IMG/VR virus record: IMGVR_UViG_3300005468_000066 | Coordinates: 1 to 20,062 of that record | Reading direction: 5' to 3' (one strand) | Origin: a virus | DNA: 20,062 nucleotides | Part shown: piece by piece, positions 3,834 to 12,752 of the stretch | Layout of the letters: each line of letters opens with the position of its first letter | How positions within the stretch are numbered: position 1 is the stretch's first letter | Made by a program: the position numbers and the translations under genes | The notes under the pieces: generated by a model | What the model was told of the DNA's origin: nothing | Database searches by the model: none | What the model saw: only the letters and a program-made list of their open reading frames with translations

Positions 3834-5756
3834 CTATCCTCCCAGGCGAATGCGCGAAAGCGTGCGTGCGCCGCTTGACGCCAGCACGCCATTGATCTCC
3901 ACGCGAATGAGTTTGCGCAGTAGTTCCGACCCAGCATCGTCAAACGAGATCACCACCCGCTGCACGCCGCTGCTGCCAAGCGCGCCGGGTGTGGCTGTGC
4001 GAAAGCCACTCGTCGTCGTGCGCGTCAGCGACTGCCCGGTTGGCGGCGGCGCGCTCTCGCCACCACCACCCCCGCCCCCATCCCCGCCAGCCCAGCTGGG
4101 GATGTGGATGCTCTTGATTTTCGCGGCCAGCTCCTCAAGCCACTGCACCACGCCCTGCACGTTATCCATCAGGTCGCTAAAGAAGCCGACGACCGGCTTG
4201 ATCAGGGTACCGAGCGCGCTGATGGCCGGCCCGGCAATCGTGGAGATCACATCGCCGATCTTGCGTAAGATCGGCAGCACGTTCTTATCGATATAGTCCC
4301 ACAGCTTCACGAACGCGGGAACAAGTGTCGTGGTGATAAACCCAGCAATCAGCTTGAAGGCCACCACCAGCACCGCGTTAATCACCTCGCCGATGGCGTT
4401 GAGGATCGGCAGCACCTTCGTGCTGATGAATGACCAGACGGCAGACAAGGCCGGCAGCAGCACATTATTCCACAGATCGGCCAGGAAGCGGATCGCCGGC
4501 GGCAAATTGTCTTTCAGCCAGACGATGAGCCTGGCCAGGATCGGGATGACAAAGGCATCAAGAAACGCCCAGACCTTTTGCAGCGCCGGCCAGAGGACGT
4601 TGACCCACAGCGCCGCAAGAATCTTGATGTCTTCCTTGAGAATGGCGAATGCGACCCCCACCAGGGTATCGATGATCGGGATCACATTCTCATCGATAAA
4701 GGCCCAGACCATCTGCAAGGCCGGCTGAAGTGTCTGTGTCCAGTAGTCACTGAGTTGCTGAATTGCTGGCGGCAGCGTCTGTGAGAGCCAGGCATTCAGA
4801 TCGGAAACGATAGGGATGAGCCGGCCTGCGAGAAAGCCGCTAATCGTGCTGATGGCCGGCATGAGGGTGCTACTAAAGAAGTCGCTCGCGGTCGCGACTG
4901 CGCCGGGAAGATTATTACCCAGCCAGGTGGCTACCGTCTCGATGGCCGGCGCGAGATAGTCGTTCAGCAGCTTCCCGGCCTGGTCAAGGATTGGGAGAAA
5001 GGCCGTCGCGACCGTTTCCGCTGCCTCACCCATCCGCGCCTTGAACTGCACCGTGCCGCCGGCAGCGCCCGCCGCCGCTGCCGCGCTGCCCTTGTAGGTT
5101 GAGTTCAGCTGCTCGATCAGAAACGCCTGCGCGCCGGCAGTGTCGCCGGTCTTCTTGAACGCGTCTAAGGTTGCCTTCTGGGAATCGTTCAGCACGATCC
5201 CTTCTTTGGCGAGTTTCGCCGCCGCGTCGAACGGTTTTTGCAGCGCCCGACCCAAGAACTCAGCCGCAGCGGCCGGGTCTTTGCCCAGGCTCTGCGCCAT
5301 ATCGACGGCCAGCGTCGTCACGCCGGGGATGATGCCTTTGAGCTCTTTGTATTTGAGCAGGACATTCTCGGCACCCTGGATCTGATCATCGCCGAATAAA
5401 GATTGCCCCGCCGCGTCACTAAGACTGGCCGCCAGATCGGCCACCTGCTGCGCGCTCATCCCCGCCGCGCCGCCGGTGTTCTTGATGATCGTCTCCGTCT
5501 GCGCCATGAGCTGCTGCGTGCCGCGCGCGTCTTCCATCGCGCTCGATGCCAGATCGCCCAACTGGCTGCCAATTGCGCCGACGACGTTGGCGAGCAGGAA
5601 GCCAGAGGCAGCCTGGAGCATGCCCGAAAAAAAGCCGCTGCCTTTCGGACTGGCCTTGTCGGCGCTCTCGCCCACGTCCTTGATGTCGCTGGCGACTTGC
5701 TTGGACGCCGCGCCAATCTCGTCCTGGCCTTTGAAGATAATTGCGAGGGTCGCCAT
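3834..5756 (-). CDS. Tail tape measure protein
   Basis: 640 residues. It sets tail length and probably helps DNA entry. The first 240 residues are Ala-rich with a small hydrophobic stretch (SGFLLANVVGAIG, about 51-63) and a TMP-like segment (GKDPAAAAEFLGRALQKP). Residues about 261-530 are hydrophobic helical repeats of exactly 45 residues, followed by a Gly-rich linker (about 557-567) and a beta-like C-terminus. At roughly 1.5 A per residue, 640 residues would predict a tail near 95 nm. The ATG shares one base with the stop of the frameshifted chaperone (TAATG), with GAGG about ten bases upstream. No lytic transglycosylase or peptidase motif was noticed. Confidence 0.92.
   Translation of the reverse strand: MATLAIIFKGQDEIGAASKQVASDIKDVGESADKASPKGSGFFSGMLQAASGFLLANVVGAIGSQLGDLASSAMEDARGTQQLMAQTETIIKNTGGAAGMSAQQVADLAASLSDAAGQSLFGDDQIQGAENVLLKYKELKGIIPGVTTLAVDMAQSLGKDPAAAAEFLGRALQKPFDAAAKLAKEGIVLNDSQKATLDAFKKTGDTAGAQAFLIEQLNSTYKGSAAAAAGAAGGTVQFKARMGEAAETVATAFLPILDQAGKLLNDYLAPAIETVATWLGNNLPGAVATASDFFSSTLMPAISTISGFLAGRLIPIVSDLNAWLSQTLPPAIQQLSDYWTQTLQPALQMVWAFIDENVIPIIDTLVGVAFAILKEDIKILAALWVNVLWPALQKVWAFLDAFVIPILARLIVWLKDNLPPAIRFLADLWNNVLLPALSAVWSFISTKVLPILNAIGEVINAVLVVAFKLIAGFITTTLVPAFVKLWDYIDKNVLPILRKIGDVISTIAGPAISALGTLIKPVVGFFSDLMDNVQGVVQWLEELAAKIKSIHIPSWAGGDGGGGGGGESAPPPTGQSLTRTTTSGFRTATPGALGSSGVQRVVISFDDAGSELLRKLIRVEINGVLASSGARTLSRIRLGG
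4167..4976 (-). repeat. Six 45-residue (135-bp) repeats in the tape measure gene
   Basis: Equivalent positions fall at residues 261, 306, 351, 396, 441 and 486, always 45 apart. The best four units read WAFIDENVIPI, WAFLDAFVIPI, WSFISTKVLPI and WDYIDKNVLPI. A second landmark, xLxPA, falls at prolines 300, 345, 390, 435 and 480, also 45 apart. The units are diverged, so these are old protein-level repeats rather than recent DNA copies. Confidence 0.85.
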
Positions 5757-6249
5757 TAGTCGTCGTCCTCAAAATCGAGGCTGTTCAGGCGCGTATAGTA
5801 GGACTCGTAGGAGTCAAACAGCTGCTGGCGCAGCACCCAGAGCGCCGGCTCTTCGTCCGCTTCAGAGGGGCGGCAGCGCCAGCGCTTTGCGAGGAGGATG
5901 GTCACGCTCCAGTCCGGCGCCGCCCGCGCGTCGTTCGACCCGAAGGCGGCAGCGAGCTGGAGCTTTTCCCGTTTGGGATTGCGGCCTGCTCGCGTCTGTC
6001 CATCTGCTCGATCACCAGCAGCATCTCATCCAGGGTCAATTCGTTGACCTCAGCTTCCGACCATCCATCCAGCGCACCAGCTAAGGCCAGCGCCATATCA
6101 TCCATATCCGCATCCCTACCGGCGTTCTTGACCCGCTGGAAGGCGCGCAGGTGCTTGAGCTTCATTTTGCCTATCGGGCGCACCGTCAGTTTTTTGGAGG
6201 CCAAGATCGACTCGTCGGGCACGTCGATCAGCAGTACTTCATCGGCCAT
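5756..6249 (-). CDS. Tail assembly chaperone, long form made by -1 frameshift (GT-like)
   Basis: The 0 frame is read from the ATG at 6249 to the slippery heptamer C CCA AAC at 5977-5971. A -1 slip gives a 164-residue product: the first 93 residues end in AAIPN, then REKLQLAAAFGSNDARAAP continues without a stop to LNSLDFEDDD. The -1 frame ends in a TAA that shares one base with the tape measure ATG. Long siphoviruses normally make G and GT chaperones this way, and they bind the tape measure and recruit tube subunits. The heptamer is in the correct phase (X XXY YYZ) and the extended frame has good protein character (WSVTILLAKRW, LFDSYESYYTRL). Frameshift efficiency cannot be judged. Confidence 0.85.
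5902..6249 (-). CDS. Tail assembly chaperone, short form (G-like)
   Basis: 115 residues if no frameshift occurs. The N-terminal part (VLLIDVPDESILASKKLTV, then LKHLRAFQRV and a WSEAEVNELTLDEMLLVIEQ helix) is typical of siphovirus tail chaperones encoded between tube and tape measure. The last 22 residues, after the slip site, are a low-information Ser/Arg-rich tail (GRTTRGRRRTGA), as often seen when the 0 frame is read past a frameshift. Its start is 32 bases from the oppositely directed gene at 6282. Only a weak GTGAG lies upstream as an SD. Confidence 0.85.
   Translation of the reverse strand: MADEVLLIDVPDESILASKKLTVRPIGKMKLKHLRAFQRVKNAGRDADMDDMALALAGALDGWSEAEVNELTLDEMLLVIEQMDRREQAAIPNGKSSSSLPPSGRTTRGRRRTGA
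5971..5977 (-). promoter_or_regulatory. -1 programmed ribosomal frameshift site CCCAAAC
   Basis: Read in the 0 frame as ATC CCA AAC, so C CCA AAC satisfies X XXY YYZ. A G/A-rich run (GGGAAAAG) follows, but GGGAAAA is not in slippery phase. GC-rich sequence downstream could fold, though no clear stem was traced. Confidence 0.8.
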
Positions 6250-6250
6250 A

Positions 6251-6259
6251 TGGTATACT
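6251..6259 (+). promoter_or_regulatory. Extended -10 promoter for the plus-strand gene
   Basis: TGGTATACT matches the extended -10 form TG-N-TATAAT with one mismatch. No TTGACA-like -35 is present 16-18 bases upstream, which an extended -10 can tolerate. Transcription would start near 6266, a few bases before the SD of the 82-aa gene. Sigma preference of the host is unknown. Confidence 0.5.
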
Positions 6260-6281
6260 CACTTTCAAAAAGGAGGAAGCA

Positions 6282-6530
6282 ATGCATATCAAGGTACAGC
6301 TATCAGACCTAACCGAGATTCCGGCATTCGAGACAATCAGAGAACGGGCAGCTCGACAAGCGTATGAGCACAATGCCCGTAATCTTGAAGCGCGCTATAG
6401 TCTGACTATCCTTGCGATCATTGAACGCCATGTGTCCGATCCTGTGCTTGTTGCTGCACTCCACCACGACATCATGTATTCACTGACCCATACCGAAGTG
6501 AATCACCCGCCGATTGTTACGAACGATTAA
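6282..6530 (+). CDS. Moron-like plus-strand gene, unknown function
   Basis: 82 residues, starting MHIKVQLSDLTEIPAFETI and looking mostly helical, with His near the C-terminus (LHHDIMYSLTHTEVNHPP). No family is recognised. It has a perfect SD, AAGGAGG, five bases before the ATG and an extended -10 just upstream. It is the only supported gene on this strand within the tail operon. Its GC is low: 122 of 249 bases by hand count, against 36 of 60 in the next line of sequence. The stop overlaps the convergent tail tube stop by four bases in a shared TTAA. This is the pattern of a moron, an independently expressed cargo gene. Superinfection exclusion, anti-defence or host modulation are possible roles, none supported by a motif. 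Confidence 0.75.
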   Translation: MHIKVQLSDLTEIPAFETIRERAARQAYEHNARNLEARYSLTILAIIERHVSDPVLVAALHHDIMYSLTHTEVNHPPIVTND

Positions 6531-7546
6531 GGCAGCGGCGTAATGTCCAGCACGTTCGTGATCTTGCCTGCGTTCGCCGCGGTGGTGTTGTAGCGCGACC
6601 TGAATTTGAATACCCGAATATCATTCCCGTTGTCGTCGCCGAGTGGCCCTGGATTGAGCAACTTCACAGGCAGATCGATCAGGCACTTGCGCGTGCTGTA
6701 GGTCGTACCGGGCGTGGTGACGGCGCCGCCGGTCAAATCGATCCGCATGAGCTTCGGCGTCTGCGCACGAAAGTCCACGAGCGCGCCAGTGTTGCCATCG
6801 GCCGGCGTATCGTTCAGATAGGTGATCTGTCCGCTGATCTTCTGTCCGGTGTAGGATGGATAGGCAAAGTACAGGTTGCCGTCCATTGTAAAGACCGGCT
6901 GCCAATGGAACTCAATATCGACCTGCCAGGCGATGAGGGTCGTCGATACCTGTGTCGCGCCATACGTGCCGCCGATCGCGTCCATGTAGAGCTTGCCTGA
7001 TTGCGTCGGGAACTCGCCAATCGCGGGGATCGTCGCCGCGGCAAACCCGCCGCCCAGTCGTGCGACTTGCCGTCCCAAGAGCGTGCCGCCCATTTTACAG
7101 GTTTGGCCCATCGCGCCTTTGAGGGTGATCTTTGTGCAGACGGTGTACTCCATCTGTTCAACCTCAAAGTCATCGCCCGCCTGGATCGTGTAGGGCGTGG
7201 TGGTGGGCTTCGCGGTGGTGGGGAAGTTCGTCACATAGATTTTGTCACTGCCGGCCCCGTCCGCCGATCCGGTGGTTGGCCCGCCCGCGCCCATGACCAA
7301 TAGGTATTGGAGCTGATCGCTGGTCAGCGGCGTATCGGCCAGCGTGATCATGCCGAGCAGTTGCACGACGGCGGTTCTGTCCGCGCCGTCGATAATGCCC
7401 ATCAGCTCCTCGATCTCTTCGATCTTGCGCTGGTCGTCCAGCATCGTGCCCGCGCCGCGCCAGCGCGTGGTGGCGGCCACGGCCGTGCCAGCGACACTTT
7501 CCTTGCCAAACTGGATTCGCTGGAGTCGTTTAATGCCGGCAGCCAT
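6527..7546 (-). CDS. Major tail (tube) protein
   Basis: 339 residues, at the expected place after the head-tail connector genes and before the chaperone. It opens MAAGIKRLQRIQFGKESVAG, the N-terminal style of siphovirus tube proteins, with Gly/Thr-rich beta strands throughout (LYMDAIGGTYGATQVS, ITYLNDTPADGNTGALVDF) and a final FKFRSRYNTTAANAG segment. An AGGAG lies eight bases or so before the ATG. Its stop is tail-to-tail with the plus-strand moron-like gene. Tube assignment rests on order and fold style rather than a signature motif. Confidence 0.8.
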   Translation of the reverse strand: MAAGIKRLQRIQFGKESVAGTAVAATTRWRGAGTMLDDQRKIEEIEELMGIIDGADRTAVVQLLGMITLADTPLTSDQLQYLLVMGAGGPTTGSADGAGSDKIYVTNFPTTAKPTTTPYTIQAGDDFEVEQMEYTVCTKITLKGAMGQTCKMGGTLLGRQVARLGGGFAAATIPAIGEFPTQSGKLYMDAIGGTYGATQVSTTLIAWQVDIEFHWQPVFTMDGNLYFAYPSYTGQKISGQITYLNDTPADGNTGALVDFRAQTPKLMRIDLTGGAVTTPGTTYSTRKCLIDLPVKLLNPGPLGDDNGNDIRVFKFRSRYNTTAANAGKITNVLDITPLP

Positions 7547-7552
7547 AGCGTA

Positions 7553-7786
7553 TTACTCCTGGTACAGGCCGCTTTCAATGAGCGCCTTGATCAGACTCGC
7601 GCGGCCCTTGTTGCCTGTGATCTGCGGCCCCACCGTGCTGGCGAGATCGTCCATTTCATCGACCATCAGATCGCGCGCGGGCACATCGGGCAGCGCCGCG
7701 CCATTGCCGACGTAGACAAGCGCCGGCTTAAGTGCGGGCGTTTCGTCAGTCTTTGGTTGCGTTTCCGCTTTCGATTTGTCGCTCAT
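7553..7786 (-). CDS. Small connector-region protein, unknown function
   Basis: 77 residues from the ATG at 7786. An upstream GTG at 7819 is open but lies inside the preceding gene. The chosen ATG overlaps the preceding stop in ATGA and has GAGGGTGAG and AAGG before it. The N-terminus is charged (MSDKSKAETQPKTDETP), followed by VYVGNGAALPDVPARDL and a final helix (LIKALIESGLYQE). This GxGAALPxVPARDL pattern recurs, from memory, in small proteins of phage connector regions, but no function is known to me. Confidence 0.75.
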   Translation of the reverse strand: MSDKSKAETQPKTDETPALKPALVYVGNGAALPDVPARDLMVDEMDDLASTVGPQITGNKGRASLIKALIESGLYQE

Positions 7787-7941
7787 CCTTCGCTCACCCT
7801 CTCTGGCATCTGTACCCACTCACAGCGCCGACAGACCCGATACCCGATGTGATAACCGTTTGGCCCCATGCCGTATTCCCACTCACCGTAGGCGTGTCCG
7901 GCGTGGCGAATCCAGCAGAGAATGGCGCGAATGAAGTGCAT
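7783..7941 (-). CDS. Small zinc-binding-like phage protein (DUF1660-like)
   Basis: 52 residues from the ATG at 7941, whose A is shared with the preceding TGA stop (TGATG). A longer reading begins inside the upstream gene and is not preferred. Cys9, His13 or His16, and Cys37-x2-Cys40 (VCRRCEW) make a probable zinc site. The arrangement, a short hydrophobic start, GHAYGEWEYG, then CxRC, resembles the tiny DUF1660 prophage proteins. Role unknown. It is coupled on both sides by overlapping stops and starts. Confidence 0.7.
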   Translation of the reverse strand: MHFIRAILCWIRHAGHAYGEWEYGMGPNGYHIGYRVCRRCEWVQMPERVSEG

Positions 7942-8414
7942 CAGTTCATCGCCACTACTGGCTTTTCGATCACTGGCAGCAGCACCTTGACCCCCCAAAA
8001 GTCTTGACCGGCCCATTCTAAGGGGCCGATCTGATAAGTAAAGAACTCAGGACTGTCGCCGCGTCCAAGCTGAATCACCGCGCCCGACAACGTGATGTTC
8101 GCCACCAGCGCGCGAAAGACCGCCTCACTCCAGGGGATCGTGCGACTGTGCAGCTCCGGCAGCGGTGTCGCGCGTGCGCCCAGAAAGACCCAGATCGCCA
8201 CCGTGTAATCGTGCTCGGCTAACCCCGATCCCCCGCCGGCTGCTTCCGTCCCCCAGGAGTGCGACAGGCCCGGCGCGAGTGAGAGCACGATGCTGGGGAA
8301 CTCGCCTAAGCTGGTCGCTTCCTTCGGATCGGCGTAGACCTTTTTCGGCGTCTGCGGCGATGTGATGGTCATGAGCTGCGTGCGCAGCGCGGTTAGTGTG
8401 TTGGCGACGGTCAC
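7941..8414 (-). CDS. Probable tail terminator / tail completion protein
   Basis: 157 residues. The Pro-bounded alpha-beta pattern (FPSIVLSLAPGL, YTVAIWVFLGAR, then LEWAGQDFWGVKVLLPVIE) resembles siphovirus tail-terminator proteins that stop tube growth and join tail to head. It follows the connector protein and precedes the tail tube, as expected. The start overlaps the connector stop by four bases (ATGA). Confidence 0.65.
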   Translation of the reverse strand: MTVANTLTALRTQLMTITSPQTPKKVYADPKEATSLGEFPSIVLSLAPGLSHSWGTEAAGGGSGLAEHDYTVAIWVFLGARATPLPELHSRTIPWSEAVFRALVANITLSGAVIQLGRGDSPEFFTYQIGPLEWAGQDFWGVKVLLPVIEKPVVAMN

Positions 8415-9022
8415 ATCACCACCTGTCGCACATAGCTGCGGAACAGTCCCTTGATATGCGGTGGCCAGTTGCCCGGAATGATCAGCACGCCAAGATCAGG
8501 GATCGCCGTCTGGTCACTGGGGGCTGACCGCTTCTGATAGGCCCACCAGCAGAGCGCGTCCATCGCCAGCTCGAAATCATCAGGCACGGCCGCAAGGTTC
8601 GCCCATCCGCCCGTGTAACTGAGTCGCATCTGCGCCCGCGCGCCCCGGTAGCCCAGATAGCTCACGTTCAGATTGCGCAGCACGCAGCCAAAGCTATGTT
8701 CTTCGATGTCCAGGTTGCTCGGTGTAAGCGCGGCCCAGTTGCTCTGCCTACCGAGTCGCCAGTCGGCAGCGGTCGGCGCGCTCATCGTTGGCACTGCTGG
8801 GTAGCAGGTCAAAATACCATCGGCGTCAATGAGAGATGGCAGCACAGCCAGGCTGTACGTCGCAAGGCTAAATGCCTGATTACAGTATGTGTCGATCGCA
8901 CGGCTCATGCCCGTAACAATGCGTGCCATTTCGGTCGCTTCGTTGACGGGATCGGTAGCTGTCCCCGCCGACGATCCCCAGTTAAAGACATTCGTCGGCG
9001 TGGTGTAGTCGAAGGATGTCAC
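8411..9022 (-). CDS. Head-tail connector protein (gp6-like)
   Basis: 203 residues. It begins with an acidic helix region (VNEATEMARIVTGMSRAIDTYCNQAF) and ends with an alpha-helical part (DDFELAMDALCWWAYQKRSAP), the general plan of HK97 gp6-like adaptor proteins that bind the portal. An aromatic-rich middle (WGSSAGTATDP; YLGYRGARAQMRLSYTGGWANL) fits the membrane-free beta insertion of this family. It lies between the capsid-proximal genes and the tail terminator. Confidence 0.7.
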   Translation of the reverse strand: MTSFDYTTPTNVFNWGSSAGTATDPVNEATEMARIVTGMSRAIDTYCNQAFSLATYSLAVLPSLIDADGILTCYPAVPTMSAPTAADWRLGRQSNWAALTPSNLDIEEHSFGCVLRNLNVSYLGYRGARAQMRLSYTGGWANLAAVPDDFELAMDALCWWAYQKRSAPSDQTAIPDLGVLIIPGNWPPHIKGLFRSYVRQVVM

Positions 9023-9026
9023 GAGC

Positions 9027-9224
9027 CTACGTCACCCGCCGAAAGCCGGCTGTCTCCGCCGCTTCCACCAGGCGTAGCGGAAACGACGCGGTGCCATCTA
9101 GCGCCACATCGAACCACTCGTCACCAATCGCCATGCGATGCACATAGTGGTAGGTCTCGTGCTGCATCGTGACTATTGGCTCGGTCTGCTTGGCCTTTCC
9201 CTCGTCTTTTGGCTTATCGCTCAT
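9027..9224 (-). CDS. Small protein, unknown function
   Basis: 65 residues, between the capsid-associated protein and the connector. A lysine-rich leader (MSDKPKDEGKAKQTEP) precedes a compact body (HYVHRMAIGDEWFDVALDG, then LVEAAETAGFRRVT). GAGGGG, overlapping the previous stop, is its likely SD. No family recognised; a small head-joining or decoration protein is only a guess from position. Confidence 0.7.
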   Translation of the reverse strand: MSDKPKDEGKAKQTEPIVTMQHETYHYVHRMAIGDEWFDVALDGTASFPLRLVEAAETAGFRRVT

Positions 9225-9230
9225 GCTCGT

Positions 9231-9869
9231 CTACCCCTCGTAGCCGGCCGCGCGTGCGGCGTCGGCGTCCCACGGCGCGACCTCGACGACTCCGCCGGTG
9301 ACTTGATACCTGGCATGCCCGATCTCCAGCACGCCATTGAACGCGACCGGGCTACGCAGCGTTATTAGCGCAATCGACACCTTGGCCGGCGCTGCGCCTT
9401 CGCGCTCATCGTGCGGCATGGTTGCTTTGGCTTTCGCTTCGGCGTTCTCATCGATCAGCTCCCATCCGTTGCCCAGTCCACTGCGCCGCTTGACCCCTAC
9501 AAGCGTGATCGGCTGGCCGGTGTTCCAGATGTCGGCCGACAGATCGAAGGTGTCATCCTCGTTGTTCTTGACGATCGCCGCCTCGGCGCTGTGGCCGTCC
9601 TCCCATACCCGAATGCGCGGCGCGGCGTTGGGAATGTCCTCGGCCATGATGGTCTTGACGCCAGGAACGTCCTTTGGCGCTTTCGGCTCAGGCGCTTCGG
9701 TCTTTTTCCCCGGCTCGATCCCTAGCTTTTCCTCCAGCGAGCGCGCGGGGACGGGTGCCTCAGCAGCAGGCGGATGGGGCGCATCCTGTGGCGCGGGCGG
9801 TACGGCGTTCTGGGTCTCGACCGTGTGCGCGGGCGGGTTTGGGGACAGTGGTTTTGATCGTTCGCTCAT
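9231..9869 (-). CDS. Capsid-associated protein with Pro/Ala-rich N-terminus, unknown function
   Basis: 212 residues. Residues 1-75 are Pro/Ala/Glu-rich and probably disordered (MSERSKPLSPNPPAHTVE, VPPAPQDAPHPPAAEAP). From about 80 a compact beta-rich part follows (RIRVWEDGHSAEAAIV, LSADIWNTGQPITLVGVK, and a final VTGGVVEVAPWDADAARAAG). It lies directly after the capsid gene, where decoration or head-completion proteins are common, but no motif fixes the role. AGGAAGGA precedes the ATG. Confidence 0.7.
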   Translation of the reverse strand: MSERSKPLSPNPPAHTVETQNAVPPAPQDAPHPPAAEAPVPARSLEEKLGIEPGKKTEAPEPKAPKDVPGVKTIMAEDIPNAAPRIRVWEDGHSAEAAIVKNNEDDTFDLSADIWNTGQPITLVGVKRRSGLGNGWELIDENAEAKAKATMPHDEREGAAPAKVSIALITLRSPVAFNGVLEIGHARYQVTGGVVEVAPWDADAARAAGYEG

Positions 9870-9910
9870 CAGTAGAATCCTTCCTCTGTGATCGCGTTAC
9901 ACGGTTGCGA

Positions 9911-11464
9911 TTAGCCCGGCGCGATATTAGAAATTGTGCCCAGCGCGAACGGCGCGTACACCTTCAGCACTTCTTCGCTGTACACCCCGGTGACGTTGGC
10001 GCGGGTCACAATCGGCCAGGGGATCTGGTAGTAATCCCTGCGGCACTGCACTTGCGCGACCTGGGGCACATTCGCACTCTGGTAGAACGCCGGCAGATTG
10101 TTGCACCAGAACAAGATCGTGCCGGCAGGTATCGTCGGATGTAGCTTGATTGGGATGACGTTGCCGCCGTCCAAGCTGTAGGGGTTCATATAGAACCCGA
10201 CCACCGCGCCGGCGGTAAACGACACATTATTCGATCCCGCGTCGATATTGAAGCGCACCATCGGGTTGCTGCCGCTGACGAAACACTTGTTGAAAATGTC
10301 GGTCAGCTGCTGCCCGCTGACATAGATCACCTCTGGGCTGACGCGGTAGTTGTCCCAGAAGGACTTTAGCGCGGTGTCGATTTCGGTGACGGTGCCACGT
10401 CCGCTGGCGGTCAGCACCGTGCCGGTGCCGGCGGTGCCGGTAGCAAGCGCCACATAGTACGCCGTCGAACTATTCCACGCCGCGTAGAGCAGGCCGTCAA
10501 ACCCGGTGGCGTTCAAACTGTAGTCGGTCGATGGACTGCTGGCGCTGGCGTAGGTCGCGCCGGTGCCAAGCAGACTGGTCAGTTTCACGCTATTGATCGT
10601 CGTGATGGCTTCCAGCTTCTCACTGCCCGAAACGCCGACATACCACGCATACGCCACCGCGCCCTTGATTGCGGTCGTACTGAGTGATAGCGTGGATGTC
10701 GCGCCACTCGTGGCCTGGCTGGCGCTGGCGCTGCTGATAGACGAGCCGCCATTCACCGTGTAGGTCAGGCCGTCCATGCCGGTAACGGTCAGCAGCCGCT
10801 TCACGCCGCCGGCCACCGTCGCTAGCTGATAGCCCATGTAGGTCAGCGCGAACACATAGCACACATAGGTGGCCGCCGCGATCGTGCCGCCGGTGGTGGC
10901 CGTCGCGGTGGTGGGGGTGGCGGGCGTGCCGAGCGCAACGCTCAGATTACCACCCAGGATCGCGTGCTCCTCCATGATCATCGTCTGGTTGAGCAGCCGC
11001 GCGCCGGCTGTGCTCATGACATCCTCAAAGCCCATGCCGGCCGACTGCGCCTCGAACGTCACGTCCGACTCCAGGCCGATGGTTTTGTAACTGGCGGACT
11101 TCTGCGAGGTCGTGATCGACATGCGCCCGGCCCGCTGACCCTCCGGCACCCACGGCAGCACACCAGCCACGCTGTTACCCGCGATCGCGTCTACTTGCAC
11201 CCAGTTGGCGGCCGTGCCCGCGCCTGAACCTCTGGTCACACGCGGGATGGAGTTACGGATCGGGGTCAGCACCGGGTAGAGGTTCTTGGCCGGCGCTTCC
11301 AGGTCATAGGCAACCAGGTTCTGCGCCACCGTGATCGTGCCGGTCGCTTTCGCCAGATCGTCGGCGTTCCCACTCGCGCCGATCCCGGTGCCTGACACGA
11401 TCTTGTTGATTCCCAGGATGGTCTCAGCGGTCACGTCACGGCCGCTCTGGTCGATGATGGTCAT
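9911..11464 (-). CDS. Major capsid protein, HK97 fold with an inserted domain
   Basis: 517 residues. Residues 40-175 hold the N-arm, E-loop and first half of the P-domain (YPVLTPIRNSIPRVTRG, VPEGQRAGRMSITTSQK, YKTIGLESDVTFEAQSAG). Residues about 330-517 hold the rest of the P-domain and the A-domain (SGQQLTDIFNKCFVSG, GFYMNPYSLDGGNVIPI, VLKVYAPFALGTISNIAPG). Between them residues about 181-318 are a Thr/Ser/Gly-rich beta insertion (ATYVCYVFALTYMGYQLATV; GAVAYAWYVGVSGSEKLEAI), like FnIII- or Ig-type capsid insertions. An AAGGAG lies eight bases before the ATG. Preceded by the protease/scaffold gene. Confidence 0.9.
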   Translation of the reverse strand: MTIIDQSGRDVTAETILGINKIVSGTGIGASGNADDLAKATGTITVAQNLVAYDLEAPAKNLYPVLTPIRNSIPRVTRGSGAGTAANWVQVDAIAGNSVAGVLPWVPEGQRAGRMSITTSQKSASYKTIGLESDVTFEAQSAGMGFEDVMSTAGARLLNQTMIMEEHAILGGNLSVALGTPATPTTATATTGGTIAAATYVCYVFALTYMGYQLATVAGGVKRLLTVTGMDGLTYTVNGGSSISSASASQATSGATSTLSLSTTAIKGAVAYAWYVGVSGSEKLEAITTINSVKLTSLLGTGATYASASSPSTDYSLNATGFDGLLYAAWNSSTAYYVALATGTAGTGTVLTASGRGTVTEIDTALKSFWDNYRVSPEVIYVSGQQLTDIFNKCFVSGSNPMVRFNIDAGSNNVSFTAGAVVGFYMNPYSLDGGNVIPIKLHPTIPAGTILFWCNNLPAFYQSANVPQVAQVQCRRDYYQIPWPIVTRANVTGVYSEEVLKVYAPFALGTISNIAPG

Positions 11465-11489: not shown

Positions 11490-12284
11490 TTACTCGCTGT
11501 ACTGCGCCTTGATCAGCGCGAACTGATCGTCGTAGAGTTTCGCCATATGGGTGTTGGTGGCCGTGCGTGCCTTGCGCTGTAGATCGTTCAGCTGCTCGCG
11601 CACCAGCACGCTCATGGCCGGCTTGGTGTCGGCGGCCTCTTTCTGGCCGGCAATCTGCTTGGGAGTCGTCTGACGAATGACGGGGCCGCCGGGCATGGGC
11701 TGCGCCTCGATCTTCTGGAGGCGGTCGTTCAGATTCAGCACCGCGCCGGCCAGCGGGTTGACCGCTTTGGTGAACTCTGCGCCGATGGCCTGGGCCATGC
11801 TCATCTCGTCGCCATCGGCCATCGCGGTAATCGCCTTTTGCGCTTTGACCGATCCGGCACCGGCCATCATTTGCAAAAGCGTTTTCACGGTCTGCTCTAA
11901 GGCCGCCATGCGTGCGCCAGAAACTGGCCGGCCGGCCTTCTTGAGATTGCCGGGCCTGGCCGACTGCATGACCGGCGGCACGTCGCCTTCGGCCTGGGCT
12001 TCAGCCGGCGACTCGCTGGCTTCTTCCTGGGGCGTGCCCTCCGCCTCGCCAGCGGCCTGCTGCACGAGCGCGATCGCTTGCGTGTAGAGCGCCGCGCCTT
12101 CCATGTCGCCGGCTAATTCCAGCTCGTTGCGCGCCGCCTGGATACTAGCGACAATCTTGGCGGGATCGGCCGCAGCTTTGGCGAGCGGCGGCTGCTGTGT
12201 GCCGGCCAGCTTCTTGATAGCCGCGATCGTGTCGGCGTCCAATGCCGGCGGCGCGGTGGGGGTGTCGAGAGGTTCATCTGCCAT
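11490..12284 (-). CDS. Probable nested scaffold protein (internal in-frame start)
   Basis: Inside the protease gene, Met157 (12284) is preceded by GGAGG at 12290-12294, five bases away, a stronger SD than the main start has. It would give a 264-residue product starting MADEPLDTPTAPPALDAD, the whole scaffold-like part without the protease domain. Nested scaffolds are known for lambda C/Nu3 and similar genes. The SD falls within the MEA codons, so chance is not excluded. Confidence 0.5.
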   Translation of the reverse strand: MADEPLDTPTAPPALDADTIAAIKKLAGTQQPPLAKAAADPAKIVASIQAARNELELAGDMEGAALYTQAIALVQQAAGEAEGTPQEEASESPAEAQAEGDVPPVMQSARPGNLKKAGRPVSGARMAALEQTVKTLLQMMAGAGSVKAQKAITAMADGDEMSMAQAIGAEFTKAVNPLAGAVLNLNDRLQKIEAQPMPGGPVIRQTTPKQIAGQKEAADTKPAMSVLVREQLNDLQRKARTATNTHMAKLYDDQFALIKAQYSE

Positions 12285-12752
12285 CGGTGCCTCCATTTTG
12301 AACAGGAGTATGCGCGCGTCCGGGTTCGCCGGCCGGTCAACGAGTGAGATTTCGGTTAAGACCAATTCCAGAATGCGCCGAATGTAGCGGCCATCGGGCA
12401 GCTTTTCGAGTACCGCCTTGACGATGCGTCCGCCGATCGAGAAGCCCTTGTAGACGCCGGCCTTGACCTTTTGCCATGCGCCGTCGTCCACAACCTTGAC
12501 CGACAGCCAGAGCTGGTTGTCTCTCAGCTCGGCCTTGATCGCGGTGCCAACGGCGCTATTCGCGTGCATCTCGCGCACATTGGCGTATTCGAGATAGTCG
12601 GCCAGCGCGCCTTTGATGGCAGCCGGATCGATCACGTCGCCGATGTAGGGCGTGCCGTCCATAACGCCGGGCTGCCCATCCATCGTGTCGGTGGAGGCGA
12701 TGCCGCTGGCGATGCGCTGTTCAGCTTTCTGAATGTCGAGATAGAGCTGCAT
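11490..12752 (-). CDS. Prohead protease, XkdF-like (Peptidase_S78_2), fused to a scaffold-like region
   Basis: 420 residues from the ATG at 12752; a TTG at 12782 extends the frame but lies inside a hairpin and has no SD. Residues 1-150 match the XkdF-like protease plan: YIGDVIDPAAIKGAL, REMH with candidate catalytic His63, KVKAGVYKGFSIGG with Ser105, and TEISLVDRPANPDARI. Residues 157-420 are Ala/Glu/Gln-rich, probably coiled-coil, and suit an internal scaffold domain. Processing of the scaffold and perhaps the capsid arm during head maturation is the expected role. No clear SD precedes this start; a terminator-like hairpin ends only 13 bases before it. Confidence 0.85.
   Translation of the reverse strand: MQLYLDIQKAEQRIASGIASTDTMDGQPGVMDGTPYIGDVIDPAAIKGALADYLEYANVREMHANSAVGTAIKAELRDNQLWLSVKVVDDGAWQKVKAGVYKGFSIGGRIVKAVLEKLPDGRYIRRILELVLTEISLVDRPANPDARILLFKMEAPMADEPLDTPTAPPALDADTIAAIKKLAGTQQPPLAKAAADPAKIVASIQAARNELELAGDMEGAALYTQAIALVQQAAGEAEGTPQEEASESPAEAQAEGDVPPVMQSARPGNLKKAGRPVSGARMAALEQTVKTLLQMMAGAGSVKAQKAITAMADGDEMSMAQAIGAEFTKAVNPLAGAVLNLNDRLQKIEAQPMPGGPVIRQTTPKQIAGQKEAADTKPAMSVLVREQLNDLQRKARTATNTHMAKLYDDQFALIKAQYSE

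What the first reader, a model, noticed from the sequence alone, without database searches (positions are those of the whole stretch)
6251..6530. Independent plus-strand gene inside the minus-strand tail operon (moron candidate)
An 82-aa gene points against the operon between tail tube and chaperone. It has TGGTATACT, AAGGAGG five bases from ATG and about 49% GC by hand count. I recognise no family. Morons often carry superinfection exclusion, anti-defence or host-modulating genes, so this is the window's strongest candidate for an undescribed function.
Basis: partly seen in the sequence, partly recalled or inferred. Interest (0 to 1): 0.7.

Follow-up and report, generated by a model that had tools for sequence, protein, structure and literature searches.

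The report
Small accessory gene in tail operon
A phage of unknown host carries a tiny extra gene, pointing the wrong way, wedged cleanly between two tail genes that lie side by side in most of its relatives; it looks like a cargo gene picked up recently, and what its protein does is not known.

Summary
An 82-aa ORF (6282-6530, +) lies between the tail tube (6527-7546, -) and tail-chaperone (5902-6249, -) genes, with AAGGAGG five bases before its ATG and TGGTATACT upstream. GC is 49% against 62% for the genome; 0.4% of 277-bp windows are as low. Codon-position GC supports coding (p = 0.0005). In this phage the gap is 277 bp and holds almost only this gene; in a tenth relative the same gap holds a different opposite-strand gene, an HNH nuclease. 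So it is a single-gene insertion at a recurrent site in a phage with an integrase: moron-like. Two moron features are weak or missing: no -35 box and no terminator (its stop overlaps the tail-tube stop). No homologue was found in Pfam, PHROGs, PADLOC, PDB, phages, plasmids, IMG/VR or GTDB genomes; the pattern-based scans miss distant kin. The lone-sequence model is a helical hairpin without a membrane segment, against HK97-gp15-type membrane exclusion; a soluble counter-defence or host-modulating protein is the likeliest role, but unproven. New member of a known kind, modest interest.

The parts
6250..6526 (.). 277-bp inserted segment between the tail-tube stop and the chaperone start; GC 48.4%
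   Evidence: Gap is 1-28 bp in nine relatives, 762 bp (HNH gene) in one; composition
6251..6259 (+). TGGTATACT, candidate extended -10 promoter element; no -35 hexamer upstream
6270..6276 (+). AAGGAGG, Shine-Dalgarno sequence 5 bases before the ATG, only copy in the window
6282..6530 (+). 82-aa protein-coding gene of unknown family (pI 5.9, 9.4 kDa, predicted helical hairpin)
6527..7546 (-). Tail-tube-like gene (339 aa); its stop overlaps the stop of the 82-aa gene (TTAA). The tail-tube name rests on gene order, no family profile matched
5902..6249 (-). Tail assembly chaperone, short (G-like) frame; weak Phage_TAC_7 match
   Evidence: E = 0.004, below cut-off
5971..5977 (-). CCCAAAC slippery heptamer, in frame, probable -1 frameshift to a GT-like long form
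   Evidence: in frame in all 11 loci
3834..5756 (-). Tape measure protein gene
   Evidence: phrog_27166, E = 6e-16

Best explanation
The 82-aa ORF is a real protein-coding gene acquired as a compact single-gene insertion (277 bp: extended -10, ribosome site, ORF) into the gap between tail tube and tail chaperone of a probably temperate phage (it encodes a tyrosine recombinase). Shown: the ORF, the clean occupied and empty sites, the foreign composition, the coding signal. Inferred: because it points against the late operon it is not made from the late transcript but from its own weak promoter, probably in the lysogen or early in infection. It would give a small soluble helical protein that acts by binding a host or competitor-phage protein, most likely as counter-defence or host modulation. 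It would persist because this gap tolerates insertions without breaking either tail gene.
For: Nine empty sites (gaps 1-28 bp) and one site holding another opposite-strand gene, an HNH nuclease. Absent from the records of four relatives. GC 48.4% against 62.1%; 0.4% of genome windows are as low, all of them here or in one other stretch. Single AAGGAGG in the window, correctly placed. Codon-position GC contrast p = 0.0005. Integrase and ParA genes in the same genome. No transmembrane-scale hydrophobic stretch (best 19-residue Kyte-Doolittle mean 1.32). Helical hairpin model, pLDDT 75 from a lone sequence.
Against: No -35 box, although switch-region promoters in this genome and a relative are near-perfect sigma-70 sites. 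No terminator, so its transcript would run antisense into the tail tube gene. No homologue anywhere, so no conservation or selection test is possible; the only second copy is the identical phage. The host is unknown. The step from 'small soluble protein' to 'counter-defence' is inference only.
Confidence: 0.6

Rival explanations
1. The insert works mainly as DNA or RNA: transcription from 6251-6259 runs against the late operon and, lacking a terminator, makes RNA antisense to the tail tube. It would damp tail-gene read-through in the lysogen, and the ORF would be incidental or secondary.
For: No terminator; the gene ends inside the tail-tube stop; opposed orientation.
Against: A perfectly spaced AAGGAGG and coding-type GC by codon position would not be needed. 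No Rfam match at 5700-7600. Other relatives manage without it.
Confidence: 0.12
2. A decaying remnant of a mobile insertion, such as a homing endonuclease gene or a fragment of an HD-domain enzyme, without present function.
For: The same gap holds an HNH nuclease gene in IMGVR_UViG_3300025922_000024. Residues 54-71 weakly resemble the HD motif of TIGR00277 (E = 0.039, 13.8 bits against a cut-off of 27.6).
Against: No sequence similarity between the insert and the HNH gene or any fetched locus. The ORF fills the insert from ribosome site to tail-tube stop, with no broken frame. The HD match covers only 18 residues and the protein ends 11 residues later.
Confidence: 0.15
3. A superinfection-exclusion or tail-interference protein aimed at tail proteins of competing phages, linked to the tail genes it acts on, as HK97 gp15 is tied to tail tube and tape measure (PMC10883804) or Tai to tail assembly (PMC11364771).
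For: Position between tail tube and tail chaperone; moron-like features.
Against: No membrane segment, unlike HK97 gp15 and SieA; no PADLOC match. Position in the tail operon alone is weak evidence of a tail target.
Confidence: 0.1

Closest known systems
Morons of lambdoid and Mu-like phages
   Same: Single accessory gene between two genes that are adjacent in relatives; base composition unlike its neighbours (definition in PMC4378225)
   Different: No terminator and no complete promoter found; points against the operon; expression unknown
HK97 gp15 superinfection-exclusion moron
   Same: Small accessory gene of a temperate siphophage; [quoted passage not shown]
   Different: gp15 is a predicted inner-membrane protein; this one has no membrane segment. 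No sequence comparison with gp15 was made
Free-standing HNH homing endonuclease genes in phage tail operons (PMC10448857)
   Same: Insertion into the same tail-tube/chaperone gap, same opposed orientation, in a relative
   Different: The 82-aa protein has no nuclease motif, and no DNA similarity to the HNH insert

Membership tests
Moron | Present in one phage, absent at a clean junction in relatives | tested here: met
   Nine empty junctions with gaps of 1-28 bp against 277 bp here
Moron | Base composition different from adjacent genes | tested here: met
   48.4% against 62.1% GC
Moron | Own promoter | tested here: inconclusive
   TGGTATACT extended -10 at 6251-6259 but no -35 hexamer
Moron | Own terminator (original strict definition) | tested here: not met
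   No + strand terminator near 6530; first candidates are weak and inside the tail tube at 7114 and 7215. The looser present use of the word does not require it (PMC6316719), and only in that looser sense is it called a moron here
Moron | Expressed from the repressed prophage | not testable with these tools
   No RNA data
HK97 gp15 / SieA-like membrane exclusion protein | Membrane segment or signal | tested here: not met
   Best 19-residue Kyte-Doolittle mean 1.32; GRAVY -0.20
HNH or GIY-YIG homing endonuclease | Nuclease domain | tested here: not met
   No match in Pfam or PHROGs, none of this kind in NCBIfam
HD-domain phosphohydrolase (TIGR00277) | Whole HD domain over the curated cut-off | tested here: not met
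   13.8 bits against 27.6, 18 residues only
Known or candidate phage-defence protein (PADLOC) | Match to a family model | tested here: not met
   0 families at E <= 10

The most novel reading that the evidence does not exclude
The 82-aa protein is the first member of an unseen family of soluble counter-defence or phage-exclusion proteins, carried at a recurrent opposite-strand cargo site between tail tube and tail chaperone in a phage group for which no cultured member was found here.
Probability: 0.12. Interest if true: 0.6.

Novelty: new member of a known kind. Interest (0 to 1): 0.3.

Why it matters
If expressed, it marks the tail-tube/chaperone gap as a cargo site in an uncultured group of phages and adds an orphan small protein to test for counter-defence or exclusion. 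The main result is the documented insertion site: nine empty, two filled by unrelated opposite-strand genes, which gives a place to look for further cargo.

Tried and rejected
Homology: Pfam, PHROGs, NCBIfam, PADLOC, phages and plasmids by tblastn at E <= 10, IMG/VR with three sets of peptide patterns, GTDB genomes, six-frame phmmer over all fetched loci: only the phage itself. The pattern-based scans need an exact 8-residue stretch, so distant relatives may be missed. PDB by sequence: one match, E = 1.3, not meaningful. Foldseek in PDB and BFVD: best E 3.7 and 0.58, generic helical hairpins; VIA-align: only helical-bundle matches, Z up to 6.7 at rmsd 7.6 over 70 residues, below the level the tool calls informative. 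Encapsulated ferritin came up repeatedly in Foldseek (E 4-10) and was set aside as a common two-helix shape. HD domain: rejected, see membership test. Host: capsid, terminase and ParA matches point to many unrelated hosts, and relatives cannot be drawn for a virus record. Tail-tube relatives were not found in the phage collection or in GTDB genomes. Other short ORFs overlapping the insert in the ORF listing were not considered genes.

Full report
Observation. The 82-aa ORF runs 6282-6530 on +, while the structural genes around it run on -. AAGGAGG at 6270-6276 is the only copy in the 20-kb window; TGGTATACT at 6251-6259 is the only exact extended -10 match, but no -35 hexamer goes with it. The gene ends in TTAA, sharing bases with the tail-tube stop, and no terminator follows.

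Is it coding? The insert of 277 bp has 48.4% GC against 62.1% for the genome; only 0.4% of 277-bp windows are as low, in this place and in one other stretch near a helix-turn-helix gene. GC by codon position is 63/35/49%, the usual coding pattern for a gene of such composition; position 1 against position 2 gives Fisher p = 0.0005. An ORF of this length alone is not strong (p about 0.04 in simulated sequence); the ribosome site adds p about 0.003. Together a real gene is likely. No orthologue exists to test selection.

Where it lies. The window is a virus record of 20,062 bases. IMGVR_UViG_3300025922_000007 (40,169 bp) holds the same sequence: the 13 kb around the insert compare without a mismatch, and the window maps across the two ends of that record, which share about 127 bp, so the record is probably a complete circular assembly (the zero-difference count printed there covers only the part before the record's end, and the rest is matched by 100-base probes). 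It codes for a tyrosine recombinase and a ParA protein, so the phage is probably temperate.

Presence and absence. The tail-tube protein was used to find relatives in IMG/VR at 48-76% identity. In nine of them (L004, L005, L006, L014, L018, L019, L020, L021, L022) the next gene begins 1-28 bp after the tail-tube stop. In this phage the gap is 277 bp. In L007 it is 762 bp and holds an opposite-strand gene with an HNH nuclease domain (Pfam PF01844 E = 4e-9; endonuclease VII family phrog_1035 E = 4e-34). L018, whose chaperone resembles that of L007, has the empty form. Thus two unrelated opposite-strand genes have entered the same gap. The chaperone role of the downstream gene is weak by profile (Phage_TAC_7 E = 0.004, below cut-off) but all eleven loci keep an in-frame CCCAAAC or CCCAAAA slippery heptamer, as expected for a tail chaperone with a -1 frameshift. 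The 82-aa gene was not found in the records that hold L004-L007 (these records may be incomplete) or in any fetched locus.

What the protein may be. No family matched in Pfam, PHROGs or PADLOC; the only NCBIfam line is a sub-threshold 18-residue HD-motif match. AlphaFold2 on the lone sequence gives two main helices, 14-50 and 54-70, pLDDT 74.7, pTM 0.42; structure searches return only generic helical shapes. It is slightly acidic (pI 5.9) with no membrane-length hydrophobic stretch. This lowers the chance of a membrane exclusion protein such as HK97 gp15 or SieA (PMC10883804). A soluble partner-binding role, counter-defence or host modulation, is the most likely class by elimination and by what small phage proteins commonly do (PMC11323111, abstract); nothing here shows it.

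Against known kinds. The description of morons in PMC4378225 has three parts: insertion between adjacent genes (met), different composition (met), flanking promoter and terminator (promoter uncertain, terminator not found). [quoted passage not shown] in that sense this is a moron, in the original strict sense it is not shown to be one. Nuclease genes at such sites in tail operons are known (PMC10448857), and the HNH gene of L007 fits that.

Consequence for the operon. In several relatives the chaperone's GGAG-type ribosome site lies in the short gap. In this phage the bases before the chaperone ATG are TTTGAAAGTGAGTATACCAT, without GGAG; the insertion may have changed how strongly the chaperone is translated. 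L004 also lacks GGAG, so this is a remark, not a finding.

Verdict. Real, cleanly inserted, probably a protein-coding accessory gene; function unknown with a stated best guess. New member of a known kind.

Noticed in passing
window 5971-5977 (-), and L003-L007, L014, L018-L022: In-frame C CCA AAC or C CCA AAA slippery heptamer in the tail chaperone gene of all eleven loci, pointing to a conserved -1 frameshift into 5756-5977 (-).
   Followed up: partly
L007 7018-7767 (-); record IMGVR_UViG_3300025922_000024: HNH / endonuclease VII-like gene in the same tail-tube/chaperone gap, opposite strand.
   Followed up: yes
L030 about 7400-11200 (same record): Between chaperone and tape measure: opposite-strand HTH_26 regulator and GIY-YIG-like gene, then a Dam methylase and a 157-aa gene, with divergent near-consensus sigma-70 promoters. 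Could be a cargo cassette or an immunity region.
   Followed up: partly
IMGVR_UViG_3300025922_000007, ends of the record (L010, L011): The ends share about 127 bp and the window spans them, so the 40-kb record is probably circular and complete.
   Followed up: partly
L011 about 11970-12480: The only other low-GC stretch of this genome: an HTH_17 gene and a perfect TTGACA-17-TATAAT promoter, likely a regulatory region.
   Followed up: no
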